Shown here one piece after another: positions 1 through 40,473 of a stretch of DNA of 40,473 nt (within the stretch, counting starts at the first letter, position 1; the number at the start of each line of letters is the position of its first letter). The DNA lies in the IMG/VR virus record IMGVR_UViG_3300023223_000360, positions 1-40,473 of that record, one strand, 5' to 3'. The translations under genes were made by a program, and so were the position numbers. The stretch is from a virus. The notes under the pieces are model-generated. The model searched no databases. It saw only the letters and a list, made by a program, of their open reading frames with translations, and was not told where the DNA came from.

Positions 1-144
1 GCCTTGACCTATTGCAAATAGCATTATATATTGAGGTAACTTAACAAAAGGAAATAACGAAAAATGGAAAAACCGATCATTATAGAACTACCAAAAATCT
101 CAAGGACTTTATTTACCTATGAGACTTATGGCGTAAAAATGGGC
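1..144. repeat. terminal direct repeat, copy 1
   Basis: Identical to 40330-40473. It covers the first promoter, the leader and the first 81 bases of the gene at 64. The repeat means the molecule closes on itself with a unit of about 40,329 bp. This could be an assembler overlap of a circular or circularly permuted genome, or a true short direct terminal repeat; one sequence cannot decide. Confidence 0.95.
4..59 (+). promoter_or_regulatory. phage promoter P1 with leader
   Basis: TTGACC (4-9), 17 bp spacer, TATATT (27-32), then AACTTAAC (38-45) and an AAAGGAAATAACG leader before the start codon at 64. The spacer holds a CTATT-GCA-AATAG dyad containing TTGCAA. It is the member closest to a sigma70 consensus of a family of eight similar promoters in this genome. 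In the closed molecule it is divergent from the RHH gene at 40229. Confidence 0.8.
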
Positions 145-605: not shown

Positions 606-624
606 CAACCAAAAAGGAAATAAC

Positions 625-1104
625 ATGAAAAACATAATTATAATAGCAATGGTGATTTTTACCGCATCTTGTTCTACGGTATCAACTAAACAGCTTGATC
701 CGAGGATTACGGCAATACAGAAAGAATACAGCAATCCAAAGACTTATACAGACACTTATGATTGCTCCAATAAATCCGCCGACATCTTGGAAGAACTTCA
801 TCGGATAGGCATTGAAGCCGAGATTCATGTAGTAGGAGCGTTTATGAGCTTACATGCTTGGGTTTATATTGTAGAGACTGGACACGTTATTGACTCAACA
901 TCAATGACTAACTATCCTGCTTGGCTTGATTATAAGGGACAAATTATGCGCCCTGCCTACAAGTGCAAGATTACGTATGAAGACCTTCAAGTATTGCTCT
1001 ATGACCCTAAAAAGGCTAAGTCATGGAAGCCAAAGAGAAAGATAAAGCCTTGGATATTAAAAATAATAAGAAATGTTAAAGAATACAAAGGGGTAGTAAA
1101 ATGA
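625..1104 (+). CDS. predicted lipoprotein with transglutaminase-like C/H/D triad
   Basis: 159 residues. The start at 625 is chosen because it directly follows AAAAAGGAAATAAC; an in-frame ATG at 595 would include the upstream hairpin. Residues 1-16 form a lipoprotein signal ending TASC, with Cys16 as the likely lipidated residue. After it, DCSNK (Cys47), LHAWV (His77) and VIDST (Asp90) have the order and local context of the papain/transglutaminase-like fold, where Cys, His and Asp form the active site. A secreted, membrane-anchored enzyme or binding protein expressed early by a phage could modify the envelope or block superinfection; this role is inferred. It overlaps the next gene by 4 bases. 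Confidence 0.7.
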   Translation: MKNIIIIAMVIFTASCSTVSTKQLDPRITAIQKEYSNPKTYTDTYDCSNKSADILEELHRIGIEAEIHVVGAFMSLHAWVYIVETGHVIDSTSMTNYPAWLDYKGQIMRPAYKCKITYEDLQVLLYDPKKAKSWKPKRKIKPWILKIIRNVKEYKGVVK

Positions 1105-1736: not shown

Positions 1737-1913
1737 ATGAGTGAACGAACAGACGAAGACATAAAAGCAAGCAATGACGGGATTTTGAAAACTGTTGAGG
1801 CTTACAACGAGGCCGAGGACATTAAAGATAATAGCTGTCGGGATTGTGGAATTTATTTAATTTATGGTGGTTTGTGCTTTGATTGCCATAATAAGTTGAC
1901 AAAAGAACTATGA
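1737..1913 (+). CDS. small zinc-ribbon protein
   Basis: 58 residues, starting directly after the stop of the HTH gene (TAA then ATG). The C-terminal half carries two CxxC knuckles, CRDC and CFDC, about ten residues apart, typical of a zinc ribbon of the DksA/TraR-like or generic phage type. The N-terminal half is acidic and helical. It is the last gene of the first plus-strand unit, followed by a terminator-like RNA structure. Zinc binding is inferred from the Cys spacing. Confidence 0.6.
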   Translation: MSERTDEDIKASNDGILKTVEAYNEAEDIKDNSCRDCGIYLIYGGLCFDCHNKLTKEL

Positions 1914-1941
1914 CGACTTAATTTAATATTGTTAAGTATAT

Positions 1942-2020
1942 AAAACTTACTAGGTTTTTAACTGCGAGCCGAAAGGCATCTACCGCAATGTTATTTCCCC
2001 TCCCTAGTAAGTTTTTTTTT
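1942..2020 (+). terminator. large-loop terminator or terminator-ended small RNA
   Basis: A 13 bp perfect stem (AAAACTTACTAGG at 1942-1954 with CCTAGTAAGTTTT at 2003-2015) runs into nine Ts. Its 48-base loop is far larger than a normal terminator loop and holds a nested hairpin: TGCG/CGCA outside, GCC-GAAA-GGC with a GNRA tetraloop inside. Bases 1988-2000 (ATGTTATTTCCCC) stay unpaired and are complementary to the GGGAAATAACAT leader used by many genes here. It ends the 64-1913 transcript. It may also accumulate as a small RNA, which is inference. Confidence 0.75.
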
Positions 2021-2059
2021 GCCCGTAAAAAATAAATCAATAAAAGGTGTTGCGCCTGC

Positions 2060-2123
2060 TTGCAATGTTGCGGATAGCAATTATATTAAGAGTAGTAAGA
2101 TAACTTAACGAAATAGGAAATAA
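2060..2123 (+). promoter_or_regulatory. phage promoter P2 with leader
   Basis: TTGCAA (2060-2065), 16 bp spacer, TATATT (2082-2087), AACTTAAC (2102-2109), then an AGGAAATAAC leader before the gene at 2128. The 32 bases from the -10 through the ACTTAAC box are identical to promoter P3 at 22456-22487. Confidence 0.8.
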
Positions 2124-2127
2124 CAAA

Positions 2128-2387: not shown

Positions 2388-2414
2388 TTTAACAATAACA
2401 AAAAAGGAAATAAC

Positions 2415-2672
2415 ATGTGTTTAGATACAACGATTAAAAATGATGCCGATAAAGTGATCGAGCCAATAATGATAACCAAAAAGCAAGAGTTAGTTTTTCG
2501 ACGGTCTTGTTATTTATTGGAGCATAGCGGGAATAATGGCTATGCCAATATAGATGATTGGTCGCCGAAAGATGTGGAAAATGTGCTTTACTTTATCAAT
2601 CTAAGGTTGTCACAAAGTGAAGCCAAAGGGTTAAGATGTGTTTTAATAGCAAAAAATAACGAGGTTAATTAA
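2415..2672 (+). CDS. hypothetical protein
   Basis: 85 residues with an ideal leader (AAAAAGGAAATAAC) directly before the ATG. It has scattered Cys (positions 2, 32 and 79 or nearby) but no recognisable zinc motif. It lies two bases upstream of the ERF recombinase gene, so it is probably co-transcribed and may assist recombination or replication. No homology is claimed. Confidence 0.65.
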   Translation: MCLDTTIKNDADKVIEPIMITKKQELVFRRSCYLLEHSGNNGYANIDDWSPKDVENVLYFINLRLSQSEAKGLRCVLIAKNNEVN

Positions 2673-3252: not shown

Positions 3253-3662
3253 TGAATATCACCGATATTGAAAATAATTTATCAACTCATTATATAGATG
3301 ATGAAATATGGTTTATCGGTGCGGAAGTTTGCGCATTAATTGACGTTAATAAATGTCAGTTGCGCAGGCTTGATGCAGACGAAAAAATGCTCGAAAGAGT
3401 CAAAACAAAAGGAGGCGAACAAAACACAACGCTAATAAATGAGTCCGGCTTTTATCATTTAATTTTAACATCGAAAGCTAAAAAGGCTCAAGAGTTCAGA
3501 AGACTTATAACAAAAGAGTTTTTGCCGAAATTGCGAAAACTTTATCAATACCAACCCGAAAATATAGCTAAGTTTATCGAAGAGGCAAGCGGTAAAAAGC
3601 TTTTGACATTTGAAAAAAGATACTTAAACGCATTATTAATTGACACAACAAAAGGGAAATAA
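3252..3662 (+). CDS. BRO-N domain protein (antirepressor-like)
   Basis: 136 residues, start overlapping the ERF stop by one base (TAATG). Residues about 15-100 show the BRO-N pattern: DDEIWFIGAEVCALIDVNK near the N-terminus, a middle INESGFYHLILTSKAKKAQEF segment in pieces, then FRRLITKEFLPKLRK. BRO-N domains bind DNA and occur in phage antirepressors. No second domain is present, so this is a short version; its C-terminus is helical. It probably regulates transcription early, perhaps at the dispersed promoters. Confidence 0.82.
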   Translation: MNITDIENNLSTHYIDDEIWFIGAEVCALIDVNKCQLRRLDADEKMLERVKTKGGEQNTTLINESGFYHLILTSKAKKAQEFRRLITKEFLPKLRKLYQYQPENIAKFIEEASGKKLLTFEKRYLNALLIDTTKGK

Positions 3663-3663
3663 C

Positions 3664-3834
3664 ATGTTTATATACGAAATAGACTTTGGCGGTTGTTGCA
3701 TAAGATCGAAAAGACCTTTAATTAGTTTGAAAGCATGTAAAGAAGAAATTAAACAAATATTAGAAAACGAAGTTCCGGCAAAAAGCTTTAAAATATATGA
3801 AGCTGTAAAAGTATACTCCGAAAAATTAACTTAA
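3664..3834 (+). CDS. small hypothetical protein
   Basis: 56 residues. The start at 3664 is set by the AAAGGGAAATAAC leader; an upstream in-frame start at 3640 would lie inside the BRO-N gene and include the leader. It has a Cys pair (GGCC) near residue 10 and a helical, lysine-rich middle. No family recognised. It sits between BRO-N and the exonuclease. Confidence 0.6.
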   Translation: MFIYEIDFGGCCIRSKRPLISLKACKEEIKQILENEVPAKSFKIYEAVKVYSEKLT

Positions 3835-3849
3835 TAAAAGGGAAATAAC

Positions 3850-4509
3850 ATGAATACACCAGTAACAATAGACCTCGAAACAATGCCAACTCAAAGCGTT
3901 GAGCAAAAAAGAATACTCGTAAAGAATATTAAGCCACCATCTAATTATAAAAAACAGGATATTATTGACGCATGGATTAAAGATAAAGAGTATAAAATAG
4001 TTAGTGAAACCTCATTTAATGGTGGTTTAGGCGGTATTTACTGTATCGGACTGGCTATACAAGACGAAGCGCCGTTTTGTATTGAGACAGAAGATTATAA
4101 AAGTTTTGAATCGGAGCGTGTAGTTTTAGAAAAATTAAACGAAAAAATGGCAGGTGTTAATCCTTGGTTTATAGGTCATAATTTATCAAGATTTGATTTA
4201 TTGTTTTTAAGACATCGTTATATAATCCATAGACTTCTGCCTACATTTATCAATCCTTGGAGTTCTAAGCCTTGGGATAACGCTTATTTTGATACTGCCT
4301 GCGCTTGGATAGGCAACGGGCAACATGATTATTTAAAGTTAGATGATCTTTGCAATTATTTGAATGTACCAACGCCTAAAGGCTCGATCGATGGTTCGCA
4401 GGTTTGGAATACCATTAAGAACGGTAAAGGCTCAGAGGTCGCCAAGTATTGCCAACGTGACATCGTAGCGACAAGAAGTTGCTATCATATATTAAAACAG
4501 TTTATGTAA
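3850..4509 (+). CDS. PolB-like 3'-5' exonuclease (DnaQ fold)
   Basis: 219 residues, preceded by AAAAGGGAAATAAC. It carries the three motifs of DEDDy exonucleases: Asp8/Glu10 in TIDLET (Exo I), IGHNLSRFD with Asp116 (Exo II) and YCQRD with Tyr200/Asp204 (Exo III). Length and layout fit the family of predicted 3'-5' exonucleases related to the PolB proofreading domain (DNA_pol_B_exo2). No polymerase accompanies it, so it probably serves recombination, resecting DNA for the ERF annealing protein, or degrades host DNA. Confidence 0.85.
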   Translation: MNTPVTIDLETMPTQSVEQKRILVKNIKPPSNYKKQDIIDAWIKDKEYKIVSETSFNGGLGGIYCIGLAIQDEAPFCIETEDYKSFESERVVLEKLNEKMAGVNPWFIGHNLSRFDLLFLRHRYIIHRLLPTFINPWSSKPWDNAYFDTACAWIGNGQHDYLKLDDLCNYLNVPTPKGSIDGSQVWNTIKNGKGSEVAKYCQRDIVATRSCYHILKQFM

Positions 4510-22343: not shown

Positions 22344-22433
22344 TTGCTACACTCCAAACTTTTTTTTGCTCTTTATATTAAAGTACTAACAAAACAAAAA
22401 AATACAAATGATCATTATTTTATTTAAAAGGTG

Positions 22434-22501
22434 TTGCAATCCGCAATAGCCCATGTATATTAAGAGTAGTAAGATAACTTAACGAAAAAAAGGAAATAAC
22501 G
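22434..22501 (+). promoter_or_regulatory. phage promoter P3 with leader
   Basis: TTGCAA (22434-22439), 16 bp spacer with the TTGC-N5-GCAA dyad over the -35, TATATT (22456-22461), AACTTAAC (22476-22483), and AAAAAAAGGAAATAACG directly before the gene at 22502. It is nearly identical to P2 over the -10 to ACTTAAC region. It gives the inserted cassette its own transcription in the direction opposite to the head operon. Confidence 0.85.
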
Positions 22502-22639
22502 ATGACACAGAAAATGAAAGAGCTACTAATTAAAATCGGCGAAAACAATATCAAGGTTTTAGAGGCAAAAAAACCAAAGGGTTATAAATCATTAATAACC
22601 TTATGGGAAAAAGATATTAAAGAAGCAAGGGGTAATTAA
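22502..22639 (+). CDS. small hypothetical protein, cassette gene 1
   Basis: 45 residues, helical and lysine-rich (LIKIGENNIKVLEAKKPKGY). The ideal AAGGAAATAAC leader precedes its ATG. No known family. It is the first gene of the plus-strand cassette inserted in the minus-strand head operon. Gene calling may miss it because of its length. Confidence 0.65.
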   Translation: MTQKMKELLIKIGENNIKVLEAKKPKGYKSLITLWEKDIKEARGN

Positions 22640-22640
22640 T

Positions 22641-22811
22641 ATGACACTTGACCAATTGCACGACCTAGCAGAGACATCGCCGAGGCATGAGAGATTCTTA
22701 ACCAAAATACATAATAAGGTAATTAAGCAATTAAGAAAAGAAAATAGGCCATCAAATAGCGATAATGTGATTCAATTAAAAGAAAAGTTTTGCCAAAGGT
22801 ACTCGCTATGA
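22641..22811 (+). CDS. small hypothetical protein, cassette gene 2
   Basis: 56 residues, basic and helical, beginning two bases after the previous stop. Its TGA overlaps the ATG of the PAPS-reductase-like gene (ATGA), so translation is likely coupled. No motif recognised. Tight packing suggests it functions with the enzyme that follows. Confidence 0.6.
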   Translation: MTLDQLHDLAETSPRHERFLTKIHNKVIKQLRKENRPSNSDNVIQLKEKFCQRYSL

Positions 22812-23704
22812 TATGCCATTTCTCATGCGGTGCGACTTCGGCAGTTGCGACAATCCTTGCATTAATGGAAGACAGCGAAGAAGCAATCGAGGCTGTATAC
22901 GCTGACCCAAGCATGGAACATGAAGACAATAAAAGATTCATGGAAGACTTTGAAGAGATTGCGGGAATAAAAATAACTGTTCTTAAAAGCAAAAAATATA
23001 AAGACCCTTTTGACGTATTTGACCAAAAAAGATTCTTGTCCGGTGTTTATGGCGCACCCTGCACTACTGAATTAAAGAAAAAGGTTATTGCCGACTACTT
23101 AGCAGAAAGGCTAGTTTTAGAACCTCATGTATTCGGTTTCACCTCAGATGAAGAAAGCAGGATAAAAAGATTTAAGGATAATAACCCCGAGATCGATTTA
23201 AGATTACCTTTAGTTGATAAAGGCTTATCTAAAGACGATTGCTTATTCATACTTAGAGAAATAGGGATAAGTTTGCCGATGATGTACAAGCTAGGCTATA
23301 GAAACGCAAACTGTACTGGCTGTGTAAAAGCTGAGTCGATTGGTTACTGGTCTGCCATTCGTGAAGACTTCCCCGTTATCTTTGAAAAGTTTTCTGAACG
23401 TGAAAGGCTATTTGGCAAAAAAATAGATGGTGTTCCTCGTGGTGTAGCAATTAATAAGCAATATAAAAAATGCGAAGATTGCAAGGATTCCAGTTGCGGT
23501 AATTGTGATAAAAATAATCAAGTTCGTCATCGTGTTTTTTTAGATGAAATACCGAAAGACTTTCCGCCAAAGAGATCAATTAGCTTTTCTTGTGGATATT
23601 CTTGCGGTACTCAAGATATGGAATTTATCGAGGATGAATTAACAAAAGAGCCAACGTTAACAGCTTGGATGATCTTAGAAGACATTAAAAGATGGTTGAG
23701 TTAA
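22808..23704 (+). CDS. PAPS-reductase-like (adenine nucleotide alpha hydrolase) protein
   Basis: 298 residues from the ATG at 22808; AAAGG lies 8-9 bases upstream and an in-frame TTG at 22790 is less likely. Near the start SCGATS is a variant of the SGG.DS PP-loop that binds ATP or adenylyl substrates. APCTTELKK (about 83-91) and NCTGCVKAESIGYW (about 168-181, in pieces) match phage PAPS-reductase-like proteins. Eight Cys in pairs (CTGC, CEDC, CGNC, CGYSCG) suggest zinc or iron-sulphur binding. Relatives include PAPS reductases, DndC and QueC-like enzymes, so it may act on sulphur or nucleic acids. It shares its TTAA stop with the opposing gene. Confidence 0.8.
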   Translation: MICHFSCGATSAVATILALMEDSEEAIEAVYADPSMEHEDNKRFMEDFEEIAGIKITVLKSKKYKDPFDVFDQKRFLSGVYGAPCTTELKKKVIADYLAERLVLEPHVFGFTSDEESRIKRFKDNNPEIDLRLPLVDKGLSKDDCLFILREIGISLPMMYKLGYRNANCTGCVKAESIGYWSAIREDFPVIFEKFSERERLFGKKIDGVPRGVAINKQYKKCEDCKDSSCGNCDKNNQVRHRVFLDEIPKDFPPKRSISFSCGYSCGTQDMEFIEDELTKEPTLTAWMILEDIKRWLS

Positions 23705-29000: not shown

Positions 29001-29141
29001 TTATACCATCCCCAATTCAATTCTAATTTTCGCCATTGCTTGCGCTTTCTCGACCTTGGCTTGGTCTTTCTCGGCTTGCGTTTTAGTTCCAAACATCGCT
29101 TTTACTTTTCTGTCGTAGTTTTGTATTGATTGCTGTGTCAT
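29001..29141 (-). CDS. small basic hypothetical protein
   Basis: 46 residues, placed directly after promoter P4 and the AAAAAGGAAATAAC leader, so it is the first gene of this unit. Helical, Lys/Gln/Ala-rich (AEKDQAKVEKAQAMAK). It was missed by ORF length limits. No function known. Confidence 0.65.
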   Translation of the reverse strand: MTQQSIQNYDRKVKAMFGTKTQAEKDQAKVEKAQAMAKIRIELGMV

Positions 29142-29205
29142 GTTATTTCCTTTTTAATATTAGTGTTAAGTAATTATAATATAGTGCCTATATTGCGTAT
29201 TGCAA
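29142..29205 (-). promoter_or_regulatory. phage promoter P4 with leader
   Basis: Read on the minus strand: TTGCAA (29200-29205) with TTGC-N5-GCAA dyad, 16 bp spacer, TATATT (29178-29183), ACTTAAC (29165-29171) and AAAAAGGAAATAAC before the gene at 29141. The -35 overlaps the 3' end of the membrane-protein gene at 29188. Confidence 0.83.
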
Positions 29206-30030: not shown

Positions 30031-30220
30031 CGACATCGCCTGTACCATCGCAACACAAACACTCATTCCATTTGGTCTGCCATTCGCTATAAAACGAATC
30101 AACCTGCACATATACCGATATATCCCAACCGCCCCAACCTAGACAATTTTTACAGTTAGTCTTCGGCTTTGTTTCCCCTTGGTGCATCTTGTCAACTTCT
30201 TTCTGTGATAAAACTTTCAT
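30020..30220 (-). CDS. DnaJ-type zinc-finger protein
   Basis: 66 residues from the ATG at 30220 after a conserved leader (GGGAAATAAC). CKNCLGWGG and CLCCDGTG are two CxxCxGxG-type modules as in the DnaJ cysteine-rich domain. The N-terminus is short and helical. Many phages have such small DnaJ-like zinc proteins of unknown role. An upstream longer reading includes the leader and hairpin and is rejected. Confidence 0.65.
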   Translation of the reverse strand: MKVLSQKEVDKMHQGETKPKTNCKNCLGWGGWDISVYVQVDSFYSEWQTKWNECLCCDGTGDVDAN

Positions 30221-30238
30221 GTTATTTCCCTTTGGTTT

Positions 30239-30261: not shown

Positions 30262-30399
30262 TTATTTGTAGCTGTTGGCTAATTCTTGAGCTTCTTCCAT
30301 TGTATTTTCGTTCCAAGTATAAATTCCGTCTACTACTACCCAAAAACGTCCGGCTTGAAATTTAGTGTCGATTGTTACTTTTTGCGTTTCGTTGTTCAT
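30262..30399 (-). CDS. small hypothetical protein
   Basis: 45 residues with a GAGGAAATAAC leader, first gene behind promoter P5. Strand-rich start (QKVTIDTKFQAGRFWVVVDG) with a YTWNENTMEEAQ helix. No family recognised. Too short for many gene callers, but promoter, leader and packing support it. Confidence 0.6.
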   Translation of the reverse strand: MNNETQKVTIDTKFQAGRFWVVVDGIYTWNENTMEEAQELANSYK

Positions 30400-30464
30400 G
30401 TTATTTCCTCGTTTGTGTTATTGTTAAGTTAAGTATAATATAAACGCTCTATTGCATAATGCAA
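30400..30464 (-). promoter_or_regulatory. phage promoter P5 with leader
   Basis: Minus strand: TTGCAT (30459-30464) with TTGC-ATTAT-GCAA dyad, 16 bp spacer, TATATT (30437-30442), doubled ACTTAACTTAAC (30423-30434), then GAGGAAATAAC before the gene at 30399. It lies downstream of a strong terminator. Confidence 0.83.
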
Positions 30465-31838: not shown

Positions 31839-31901
31839 GGTTTTCTCCATAAATTAAGGTTACATAATAACCTAACGTCACTTAGTATTATTTGCAAATA
31901 G

Positions 31902-31948
31902 AAAAAAACCTGCGTACCTTACTAGTTTAGAAAGCTAGTGGTAGCAGG
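31902..31948 (-). terminator. strong intrinsic terminator ending candidate ncRNA
   Basis: Minus strand: CCTGC.TACC.ACTAG pairs with CTAGT..GGTA.GCAGG (14 pairs, small bulges), followed by seven Ts (31902-31908). It ends transcription started at promoter P6 and insulates the gene at 31838. Confidence 0.88.
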
Positions 31949-32120
31949 CTTGGACTTATCATCGGCCCTTAAAAAAAATCAGCTTTGTCTCACGATATAC
32001 AACCCTTGATTGCCGAAGCACGAACAACTTAATGTCATTTAGGAGCATCCCGACTGATCACGAGGTCAGTTGCCAAAGATTAACTATATTGAACTTATAT
32101 CAGAGGTCTAGTTAATATGC
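31902..32120 (-). ncRNA. candidate phage non-coding RNA (about 215 nt)
   Basis: Between promoter P6 and the terminator lies a gene-free stretch of about 215 bases. No ORF with a leader is present on either strand. It contains an ACTGA-CCTCGTGA-TCAGT hairpin and an internal T8 run (near 31971-31978 on the minus strand) that might act as an early stop. No known RNA family is recognised. Promoter at one end and terminator at the other make an expressed RNA likely. Function unknown; it could be a small RNA or leader relic. Confidence 0.6.
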
Positions 32121-32126
32121 TACTTA

Positions 32127-32154
32127 AATATAAACCATCTGCTATTATTTACAA
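32127..32154 (-). promoter_or_regulatory. phage promoter P6 (diverged)
   Basis: Minus strand: TTGTAA (32149-32154), 16 bp spacer, TATATT (32127-32132). The spacer ends GATGGTT as in P8. The downstream AGTAGC.TATTAACT resembles a decayed ACTTAAC box, and no AGGAAATAAC leader follows, which fits a non-coding transcript. Confidence 0.65.
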
Positions 32155-32158
32155 TCAC

Positions 32159-32434
32159 CTAATTCTGTAGGCTATAAGTCGAGGCCTTATCTTCAAATAC
32201 ATAAACATCAATAATGGTTTTTGCGTCATCGTCAAGAACAATAATGTTGCCGTCTTCATCTAAAACATATCTTTCGACTTCAACCGTTCTATTATTAAAA
32301 TCAAAGTTGGCATGAACGTTTAATTTAACATCTCTAACCAAAGCCTCTGATTTGACACCATCTATAAATAAATCCCCGTCACTTGTGAATTTAACGTCTT
32401 TAATCTTCTTGCTTATTACATTTCTTTCAATCAT
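32159..32434 (-). CDS. hypothetical protein
   Basis: 91 residues, beta-rich, with DGDLFIDGVK and two strand-turn-strand stretches. No family recognised. It lies just before promoter P6; its stop is 4 bases from the -35. Start at the only upstream ATG with a weak AGGTAATAAA site. Confidence 0.6.
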   Translation of the reverse strand: MIERNVISKKIKDVKFTSDGDLFIDGVKSEALVRDVKLNVHANFDFNNRTVEVERYVLDEDGNIIVLDDDAKTIIDVYVFEDKASTYSLQN

Positions 32435-35766: not shown

Positions 35767-35861
35767 TAAGCGTGGCAGGATTCGAACCTGCACCTTTTTT
35801 TGAACACTTGGGCCAAAATCTCCACTATGTAGAACGCTCTATCCAATTGAGCTACACGCTT
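35767..35861 (-). tRNA. tRNA-like gene with aberrant anticodon/variable region
   Basis: Perfect 7 bp acceptor stem (AAGCGTG/CACGCTT), a canonical D arm (GCTC AATTGGATA GAGC) and a canonical T arm (GCAGG TTCGAAT CCTGC); discriminator A, CCA not encoded. The part between D and T arms is 43 bases after position 26, about 20 more than a class I tRNA. No 7-base loop with T33 and a 5 bp stem is evident, so no anticodon can be assigned. It may be an inserted, decayed or unusual tRNA, or a regulatory mimic. It lies between SSB and the small-gene block. Confidence 0.7.
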
Positions 35862-36393: not shown

Positions 36394-36411
36394 TTTCGTT
36401 ATCTCCTTTTT

Positions 36412-36594
36412 TTATACGCTAACAATATTAAATTTATCTTCAAGCTTTTCACCTGTAACCGTAAAACCCTCTTTAGGCATGTAATATTTTTTTGAATCGG
36501 GGTCTTGAAAATAAGTGTACTCGTCGCCAACTTTCCAACCATTTTTTGCGGACGCTTTATCCACTACAAATTTTACTGCTACTAATTTATTCAT
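36412..36594 (-). CDS. small hypothetical protein upstream of SSB
   Basis: 60 residues from the ATG at 36594, chosen because it follows GGAGATAACGAAA exactly as ssb does. Beta-rich with YTYFQDPDSKKYYMPKEG. No family recognised. A longer reading would overlap the upstream membrane protein. Confidence 0.6.
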   Translation of the reverse strand: MNKLVAVKFVVDKASAKNGWKVGDEYTYFQDPDSKKYYMPKEGFTVTGEKLEDKFNIVSV

Positions 36595-38468: not shown

Positions 38469-39235
38469 TATTTAGCCCTTCTGTCGTTATGAATTAATAC
38501 ACAATTGTCGCCTGCGCTCAATCTTGATGCCAGTCGTCCGCTGTAACGTGCCGAAATATCGCTTATCGGGACGTTTGCGGTCATTATCGTCTTTAGACAG
38601 TTATTGTATCGATAACATAACAAGTCTTCAATTATACGCCTTGAATCGTCGCTCTCTCGTTCTGCGCCTAAATCATCAATAAACAAAATATTAACATCTC
38701 GGTATTTTTTAATCGCTTTTTCTGAATCGCCACCGTCTTTTTTATACTCGGCTTGATACAAAGAAACTAATTGCCCCGACTCAACACATTTGACATTAGG
38801 CTCAATAAATCTAGTGAGCTTAACAAAAACAGCTTTTTCAATTGCCCGTTTCAAAGTCCAGTAAATTAAATGCGTCTTTCCCGAACCGTATTCACCGCAT
38901 AAATAAAAACACCATGAATCACCATTTATTAAAAAATTCATAAATTGCTTTAAAGCTTGATTTGTTTTTGGGTTTAAATCGTCATCATGAAGTTTAATAA
39001 ACCTCGGAATATCTAAAGCGCCTAAATCAGTACTTATTGAATTACGATTATCTAAAGTTTGCTTTGCGTTTTCCTGCTCCGATTTAATCACCATAAAACA
39101 ATCTTCGCAAATTAAGTCGGGCAAAGGTCTTTCAAGATTAACCGCTGAACTTTCGCACTGGCCGATCTGCTCGTCGGTATAAGCCCGCTTCTTGCATCGG
39201 GTACAATTATATTTATCTATCGTTTCTTGTTTCAT
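38468..39235 (-). CDS. DnaC-like helicase loader (AAA+ ATPase)
   Basis: 255 residues. The N-terminus has a Cys pattern (CTRC at 11-14, then CEDC at 43-46) like a zinc-binding partner-recognition domain. The AAA+ core has GEYGSGKTH (Walker A, about 114-122), VNILFIDDLG (Walker B), and TANVPISDISARYSGRLASRL (sensor I and following part). It loads the replicative DnaB-type helicase; the phage lacks one, so it must use the host helicase. It follows the initiator gene. Confidence 0.88.
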   Translation of the reverse strand: MKQETIDKYNCTRCKKRAYTDEQIGQCESSAVNLERPLPDLICEDCFMVIKSEQENAKQTLDNRNSISTDLGALDIPRFIKLHDDDLNPKTNQALKQFMNFLINGDSWCFYLCGEYGSGKTHLIYWTLKRAIEKAVFVKLTRFIEPNVKCVESGQLVSLYQAEYKKDGGDSEKAIKKYRDVNILFIDDLGAERESDDSRRIIEDLLCYRYNNCLKTIMTANVPISDISARYSGRLASRLSAGDNCVLIHNDRRAK

Positions 39236-39293
39236 GTTATTTCCTTTTTGCTGTTAAGTTAATTTAATATAAACCATCTAATGCAATTTGCAA
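39236..39293 (-). promoter_or_regulatory. phage promoter P8 with leader
   Basis: Minus strand: TTGCAA (39288-39293), 16 bp spacer, TATATT (39266-39271), TTAACTTAAC box (39253-39262) and AAAAAGGAAATAAC before dnaC-like at 39235. It separates the initiator gene from the loader, allowing independent control. Confidence 0.83.
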
Positions 39294-40329: not shown

Positions 40330-40473
40330 GCCTTGACCTATTGCAAATAGCATTATATATTGAGGTAACTTAACAAAAGGAAATAACGAAAAATGGAAAA
40401 ACCGATCATTATAGAACTACCAAAAATCTCAAGGACTTTATTTACCTATGAGACTTATGGCGTAAAAATGGGC
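40330..40473. repeat. terminal direct repeat, copy 2
   Basis: Exact copy of bases 1-144, including P1, its leader and the 5' end of the gene at 64. The partial gene here is the same gene as at 64-399, not a second one. Confidence 0.95.

What the first reader, a model, noticed from the sequence alone, without database searches (positions are those of the whole stretch)
1942..2020. Structured RNA whose unpaired loop is complementary to the shared gene leader
The loop of the 13 bp terminator stem contains a GNRA mini-hairpin plus ATGTTATTTCCCC (1988-2000), predicted to be single-stranded. It is the reverse complement of GGGGAAATAACAT, matching GGGAAATAACAT directly before the starts at 3664 and 3850 and, slightly shorter, the leaders of many other genes. 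If this RNA accumulates, it could pair with these Shine-Dalgarno leaders and repress translation of a whole gene set, an RNA counterpart to the promoter regulon.
Basis: partly seen in the sequence, partly recalled or inferred. Interest (0 to 1): 0.85.

Follow-up and report, generated by a model that had tools for sequence, protein, structure and literature searches.

The report
Terminator hairpin complementary to shared gene leaders
A phage transcription-stop hairpin carries, in its loop, an exact antisense copy of the ribosome-binding leader shared by a dozen of the phage's genes; the copy is real and unlikely to be chance, and an unrelated, well-studied phage group turns out to conserve the same arrangement, but no RNA or repression has yet been shown.

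Summary
At 1942-2020 there is a perfect 13-bp stem, a 48-nt loop and nine T: an intrinsic terminator between gene 1737-1913 and the promoter of gene 2128. The loop holds the exact reverse complement (1988-1999) of the leader GGGAAATAACAT. GGAAATAAC occurs at 12 distinct sites in this circular genome; 11 sit directly before a start codon, and the twelfth is this antisense copy (about 0.4 expected by chance). One detail is wrong: 1990-1993 pairs inside the loop, so only 1988-1989 and 1994-2002 are open. Predicted net pairing with most leaders is still about -8 to -12 kcal/mol. No close relative exists in the collections, so conservation cannot be tested here. An unrelated group gives a parallel. 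Cluster K1 mycobacteriophages have a shared leader (SAS) and one unexplained reverse copy. I find that copy in the apical loop of a conserved hairpin; its loop is invariant in 16 of 17 aligned sequences, while the stem varies and stays mostly paired. Other SAS-bearing phages lack it. Best reading: a terminator that probably doubles as an antisense RNA against the shared leader (0.42). Main rival: an ordinary terminator carrying an inverted leader relic (0.35). Transcription and repression are inferred.

The parts
1942..1954 (+). 5' arm of the terminator stem, AAAACTTACTAGG
   Evidence: perfect inverted repeat I7; fold
2003..2015 (+). 3' arm of the terminator stem, CCTAGTAAGTTTT
   Evidence: perfect inverted repeat I7; fold
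2012..2020 (+). T9 tract of an intrinsic terminator
   Evidence: sequence
1959..1993 (+). inner hairpin in the loop: UAAC/GUUA, UGCG/CGCA and GCC-GAAA-GGC (GNRA tetraloop)
   Evidence: minimum-energy and suboptimal folds, pairing probabilities
1988..2000 (+). anti-leader segment ATGTTATTTCCCC, reverse complement of GGGGAAATAACAT
   Evidence: exact 12-nt match to leaders at 3654, 3840, 30219(-); the only copy of GGAAATAAC not before a start codon
1994..2002 (+). unpaired stretch UUUCCCCUC, candidate toehold
   Evidence: about 90% unpaired; opening cost 0.1 kcal/mol
1737..1913 (+). last gene before the terminator (58 aa)
   Evidence: ORF list; no Pfam family
2048..2113 (+). next promoter region: TTGC/GCAA palindrome, TATATT, ACTTAAC
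   Evidence: sequence shared with the other regulon promoters
2115..2127 (+). leader AGGAAATAACAAA of gene 2128, first leader downstream of the hairpin
616..627 (+). target leader GGAAATAACATG (gene 625)
   Evidence: net pairing -9.7 kcal/mol
2406..2417 (+). target leader GGAAATAACATG (gene 2415); unfavourable in the model, because the best duplex runs into a neighbouring hairpin
3654..3666 (+). target leader GGGAAATAACATG (gene 3664)
   Evidence: exact match; net -10.6 kcal/mol
3840..3852 (+). target leader GGGAAATAACATG (gene 3850)
   Evidence: exact match; net -11.1 kcal/mol
30218..30230 (-). target leader GGGAAATAACATG (gene starting at 30220)
   Evidence: exact match; net -12.4 kcal/mol
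29139..29150 (-). target leader GGAAATAACATG
30397..30408 (-). target leader GGAAATAACATG
39233..39244 (-). target leader GGAAATAACATG
1918..1989 (-). minus-strand reading: leader GGGGAAATAAC followed by ATT and 23 open codons (rival: relic or tiny gene)

Best explanation
The element is the intrinsic terminator that ends the left-hand early operon (genes 64-1913) just before the next promoter. Its 48-nt loop carries a folded insert whose 3' flank is an antisense copy of the phage's shared Shine-Dalgarno leader. The most likely added function is that the stable hairpin left at the 3' end of the early transcript pairs with the leader GGRAAATAACAUG of a dozen other phage genes, starting at the open UUUCCCCUC and invading the weak UAAC/GUUA helix. 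That would block ribosome binding and couple the end of the left operon to lower translation of the leader-bearing set. Shown here: the hairpin, its T tract, its position, the exact complementarity, and the fact that this is the only leader copy not at a gene start. Inferred: that the RNA accumulates, that it pairs in trans, and that it represses.
For: Perfect 13-bp stem with T9 between a gene end and a promoter; low folding energy, z -3.1. Every other GGAAATAAC in the genome is at a start codon; the sole orphan is antisense, non-coding and inside this loop. The loop pairs better with translation starts than shuffled loops do: 17 of 72 starts below -10 kcal/mol against a mean of 5.2 and a maximum of 13 in 200 shuffles, and 5% of windows inside genes. 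Net energy after opening both partners is -7.7 to -12.4 kcal/mol for 12 of the 14 leaders tested. Among 21 long-loop terminators found in the window and 390 related or background loci, this one matched the most distinct leaders. Independent parallel: in cluster K1 mycobacteriophages the single reverse copy of the shared leader lies in the apical loop of a conserved hairpin. The loop CCUCCUAUCC is invariant in 16 of 17 aligned sequences while the stem varies with 92.7% of cells still paired. It is the most conserved stretch of the 401-nt surroundings in 17 K1 sequences. Its predicted net pairing with exact SAS copies is -7.8 to -10.3 kcal/mol.
Against: No transcript data for this phage. No relative closer than 54% (Erf), 46% (terminase) or 55% (methyltransferase) by best match was found, and no second copy of the element, so covariation is untestable. 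GUUA 1990-1993 is paired. The segment is the 3' side of an internal loop closed by a strong stem, which limits how long a duplex can form without opening it. The minus strand can be read as an inverted leader followed by ATT. In cluster K, several SAS-bearing or related phages lack the hairpin (Pixie, Keshu, TribleTrouble, Shandong1, Krueger, SirPhilip), and cluster EF phage AnnaSerena has a shared leader but no reverse copy, so a shared leader does not require one.
Confidence: 0.42

Rival explanations
1. Ordinary intrinsic terminator. The loop contains an inverted, decayed copy of a gene leader left by rearrangement; it has no regulatory role beyond ending transcription.
For: Terminator anatomy and position explain the stem. 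On the minus strand the match covers exactly the leader up to the start codon, which is ATT instead of ATG, and an AACTTA lies 9 nt upstream of GGAAATAAC, within the spacing seen in real leaders. Similarity to other leaders ends where the gene would begin. The stretch just upstream (1920-1945) also resembles the region before the 36393 gene (89% over 27 nt), as expected of a patched region.
Against: A relic should be rare and random in place; this one lies in the loop of a perfect stem. In cluster K1 the equivalent reverse copy is strictly conserved in a loop, which a relic would not be.
Confidence: 0.35
2. Functional minus-strand initiation site: GGGAGGGGAAATAAC with an ATT start drives a tiny peptide (IAVDAFRLAVKNLVSFIYLTILN) antisense to the operon end.
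For: Very strong Shine-Dalgarno (GGAGG) and standard spacing; 23 open codons.
Against: ATT is a rare start; no minus-strand promoter of the shared type lies upstream; all neighbouring genes are on the plus strand; no homologue is known.
Confidence: 0.08
3. Protein-binding or cis-acting structured 3' end: the GNRA-capped inner hairpin is a protein site, or the loop tunes readthrough into gene 2128, and the leader match is incidental.
For: The inner hairpin is well formed; the first leader downstream (2115) is itself complementary to the loop.
Against: Does not explain why the segment matches the leader to 12-13 nt; no Rfam family matches.
Confidence: 0.1
4. Chance match in an AT-rich genome.
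For: Leaders are A-rich, so partial matches are common.
Against: Expected 0.005-0.009 exact copies of the 12-mer in the whole genome on both strands, and about 3e-6 in this loop.
Confidence: 0.05

Closest known systems
Start-associated sequences (SAS/ESAS) of cluster K mycobacteriophages (PMC3203893), with the single reverse SAS in K1 phages
   Same: A conserved 13-bp leader at the ribosome-binding site of 11-19 genes, about half of them preceded by an inverted repeat now read as part of a promoter (PMC11373665). In Anaya, Adephagia, Angelica and CrimD exactly one copy is in the opposite orientation and not at a gene start; I find it in the loop of a conserved hairpin.
   Different: Unrelated sequence (GGGATAGGAGCCC against GGGAAATAACAT). 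The K1 hairpin has an apical 10-nt loop and no T tract, and lies in the gap where late transcription starts; the window's segment is in an internal loop of a terminator.
c4 antisense RNA of phages P1/P7 and sar RNA of P22 (reviewed in PMC12197685)
   Same: Phage-encoded antisense RNAs that block translation initiation, c4 by pairing of loop sequences around the ribosome-binding site.
   Different: They act on one mRNA (ant); here one RNA would act on a shared leader of about a dozen genes.
Staphylococcus aureus RNAIII and other C-rich-loop RNAs (PMC2837412; details from general knowledge)
   Same: C-rich loop complementary to Shine-Dalgarno sequences of several mRNAs.
   Different: Bacterial and much longer; the pairing here extends into a phage-specific leader.
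Microbacterium cluster EF SAS (GGGAAAGGACCCC, PMC7302621)
   Same: Shared leader at ribosome-binding sites.
   Different: No reverse copy in AnnaSerena.

Membership tests
Intrinsic (Rho-independent) terminator | Stable stem followed at once by a U tract | tested here: met
   13-bp perfect stem, T9
Intrinsic (Rho-independent) terminator | Position at an operon end | tested here: met
   28 nt after the stop of gene 1737-1913, before the promoter of gene 2128
Intrinsic (Rho-independent) terminator | Short loop, G+C-rich stem (typical, not strictly required) | tested here: not met
   48-nt loop with its own hairpin; stem A+T-rich (9 of 13 pairs A-T). Long-loop intrinsic terminators exist, so this weakens rather than excludes the filing.
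Phage antisense RNA blocking translation initiation (c4/sar type) | Complementarity to the ribosome-binding site of a phage mRNA | tested here: met
   12 nt exact to three leaders, 9-11 nt to the others
Phage antisense RNA blocking translation initiation (c4/sar type) | Pairing segment accessible in a loop | tested here: inconclusive
   1994-2002 open, 1990-1993 paired; opening all costs 2.5 kcal/mol
Phage antisense RNA blocking translation initiation (c4/sar type) | Stable transcript and repression of the target | not testable with these tools
   needs infection RNA data and reporters
Cluster K SAS/ESAS system | Homologous sequence motif | tested here: not met
   GGGATAGGAGCCC is not the leader here
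Cluster K SAS/ESAS system | Many gene starts with one shared leader, part of them with a palindrome-containing promoter, plus one reverse copy in a hairpin | tested here: met
   for the window; for K1 (works like, not a member)
Any Rfam family | Score above gathering threshold | tested here: not met
   only a tRNA in the window; no real match at the hairpin; none for the K1 hairpin

The most novel reading that the evidence does not exclude
Phages of unrelated lineages have independently evolved anti-leader RNAs: a hairpin presenting the antisense of a leader shared by about a dozen of the phage's own genes, so that one RNA can lower translation of the whole set at once. The K1 reverse SAS, unexplained since 2011, and the terminator in this window would be two instances.
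Probability: 0.3. Interest if true: 0.85.

Novelty: new variant of a known kind. Interest (0 to 1): 0.6.

Why it matters
Why some phages put one near-identical leader in front of many genes, conserved beyond what the ribosome needs, has been open since start-associated sequences were described. An RNA that reads the leader would explain the conservation and give phages a one-step switch over a gene set. The cluster K1 hairpin makes this testable in a laboratory phage.

Tried and rejected
Close relatives: Erf, terminase, methyltransferase, two neighbouring small proteins and three DNA patterns in viral contigs, plus Erf in genome contigs, gave no close relative. The 80 contigs with a similar leader pattern and L391 looked like chance matches, with no shared promoter or repeated leader. 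Rfam: nothing. Phage DNA similarity: only short chance pieces. Cofolding the whole hairpin with targets is uninformative, because nested folding cannot keep the stem while the loop pairs. Cluster EF AnnaSerena as a second parallel: no reverse copy. Covariation in K1 is only moderate: 3 pairs change on both sides, a number that 84 of 500 shuffles reach, although cells paired and covariation score exceed nearly all shuffles. The K1 argument therefore rests on loop invariance and the maintained stem more than on compensatory changes.

Full report
What was checked. The window is a circularly closed phage genome (144-bp terminal direct repeat; 40,473 bases recorded, a virus record with no host named) with Erf, antirepressor, terminase, major capsid, DNA methyltransferase and replication genes. 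Its left early operon runs on the plus strand. At 1942-2020 there is a perfect 13-bp inverted repeat around a 48-nt loop, followed by T9. It lies 28 nt after the stop of gene 1737-1913 and before a promoter region at about 2048-2113 that starts gene 2128. The fold is clearly more stable than shuffles (-23.2 kcal/mol, z -3.1, 0 of 200). This is an intrinsic terminator with an unusually long, decorated loop.

The loop. Inside it are UAAC/GUUA, UGCG/CGCA and GCC-GAAA-GGC, and on the 3' side UUUCCCCUC. Freeing the whole segment costs about 2.5 kcal/mol; the open part costs 0.1.

The complementarity. GGGAAATAACAT is exact at 3654, 3840 and 30219(-) and, antisense, at 1988-1999. The core GGAAATAAC occurs at 12 distinct sites (13 with the terminal repeat) where 0.4-0.6 are expected. 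Eleven stand directly before an ATG; the twelfth is this one, antisense to the operon and in the loop. The expected number of exact 12-mers is 0.005-0.009 for the whole genome and about 3e-6 for the loop; allowing for the search that found it, chance remains unlikely. The loop pairs with translation starts better than shuffled loops do (17 of 72 below -10 kcal/mol; shuffles mean 5.2, maximum 13). After opening costs, 12 of 14 leaders tested come out at -7.7 to -12.4 kcal/mol; two do worse in this simple model because the best duplex runs into neighbouring structure.

Conservation in relatives could not be tested. Nothing closer than about 46-55% protein identity by best match (terminase 46, Erf 54, methyltransferase 55) was found in the collections scanned apart from more distant or shorter segments, the two neighbouring small genes have no relative at all, and no other contig carries the element.

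An independent parallel. Cluster K mycobacteriophages have a shared 13-bp leader, GGGATAGGAGCCC, at 11-19 gene starts. [quoted passage not shown] I located that copy in Adephagia at 58682-58694 in the gap between genes 92 and 93. It lies in a hairpin whose 10-nt apical loop, CCUCCUAUCC, is complementary to SAS (GGAUAGGAG of GGGATAGGAGCCC plus a flanking base). The loop is invariant in 16 of 17 aligned sequences and is also present in Bella96; the exception, Amohnition, has CCUCCUUCCC. The stem varies with 92.7% of cells paired, against 38-46% when the partner is slid. Across 17 K1 sequences, including Bella96 and without Amohnition, the loop is among the 8 best of 392 ten-base windows. Opening the loop costs nothing and net pairing with exact SAS copies is -7.8 to -10.3 kcal/mol. 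Published RNA-seq places the start of late transcription in the same gap, while the early lytic region spans genes 44-88 (PMC11373665). Several SAS genes lie in that region, which fits an early-to-late shut-off; this timing argument is inference. The SAS paper does not mention a hairpin at this site. The hairpin is absent from K3 (Keshu, Pixie, TribleTrouble), Unicornvirus (Shandong1, Krueger) and one Anayavirus, SirPhilip, and a shared-leader phage of Microbacterium, AnnaSerena, has no reverse copy. An anti-leader hairpin is therefore an optional addition to a shared-leader system.

Interpretation. Terminator function is well supported by anatomy (about 0.85 in my judgement). For the anti-leader function, the orphan status of the copy, its place in a structured non-coding loop, the energetics and the K1 parallel raise the probability; the lack of relatives and of RNA data keeps it below one half. 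The main rival is an inverted leader relic. On the minus strand the leader is followed by ATT and 23 open codons, with an AACTTA upstream as in real leaders, and nothing in this genome alone separates relic from regulator. An antisense RNA born from an inverted leader would look the same.

What it works like and what it is. It would work like c4 RNA of P1/P7 (PMC12197685), but on a shared leader. It is not a member of the SAS system by sequence; the likeness is in architecture. No Rfam family matches either hairpin.

Noticed in passing
L393:38660-38718 (Adephagia JF704105 58660-58718): Conserved hairpin in cluster K1 mycobacteriophages whose apical loop is complementary to the start-associated sequence; it is the home of the unexplained reverse SAS. 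Loop invariant in 16 of 17 aligned sequences and present in Bella96; absent in K3, Unicornvirus and SirPhilip.
   Followed up: yes
Adephagia gp39 (PMC11373665, Table 1): A predicted Hfq-like fold encoded by a gene with SAS and ESAS; a possible partner for an anti-SAS RNA, as mycobacteria are thought to lack Hfq (general knowledge).
   Followed up: no
window 1-144 and 40330-40473: 144-bp terminal direct repeat: the record is a closed circular or terminally redundant genome.
   Followed up: partly
window 2048-2113, 1-60, 22420-22500, 38030-37960(-), 39300-39240(-), 30460-30400(-), 29200-29140(-): Repeated promoter with a TTGC/GCAA palindrome, TATATT, ACTTAAC and the shared leader; resembles ESAS plus SAS in layout.
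   Followed up: partly
window 31900-32160(-): Non-coding stretch with two terminator-like hairpins and no Rfam match; a possible untranslated RNA.
   Followed up: no
window 22502-23704(+): Plus-strand island inside the minus-strand late region with its own regulon promoter and a phosphoadenosine phosphosulfate reductase-like gene (phrog_424).
   Followed up: partly
window 1920-1945 and 36408-36434(-): 27 nt, 89% identical: the stretch just before the hairpin resembles the region before the 36393 gene's leader (E 0.001, AT-rich).
   Followed up: no
window 35767-35861(-): tRNA-Leu gene.
   Followed up: no
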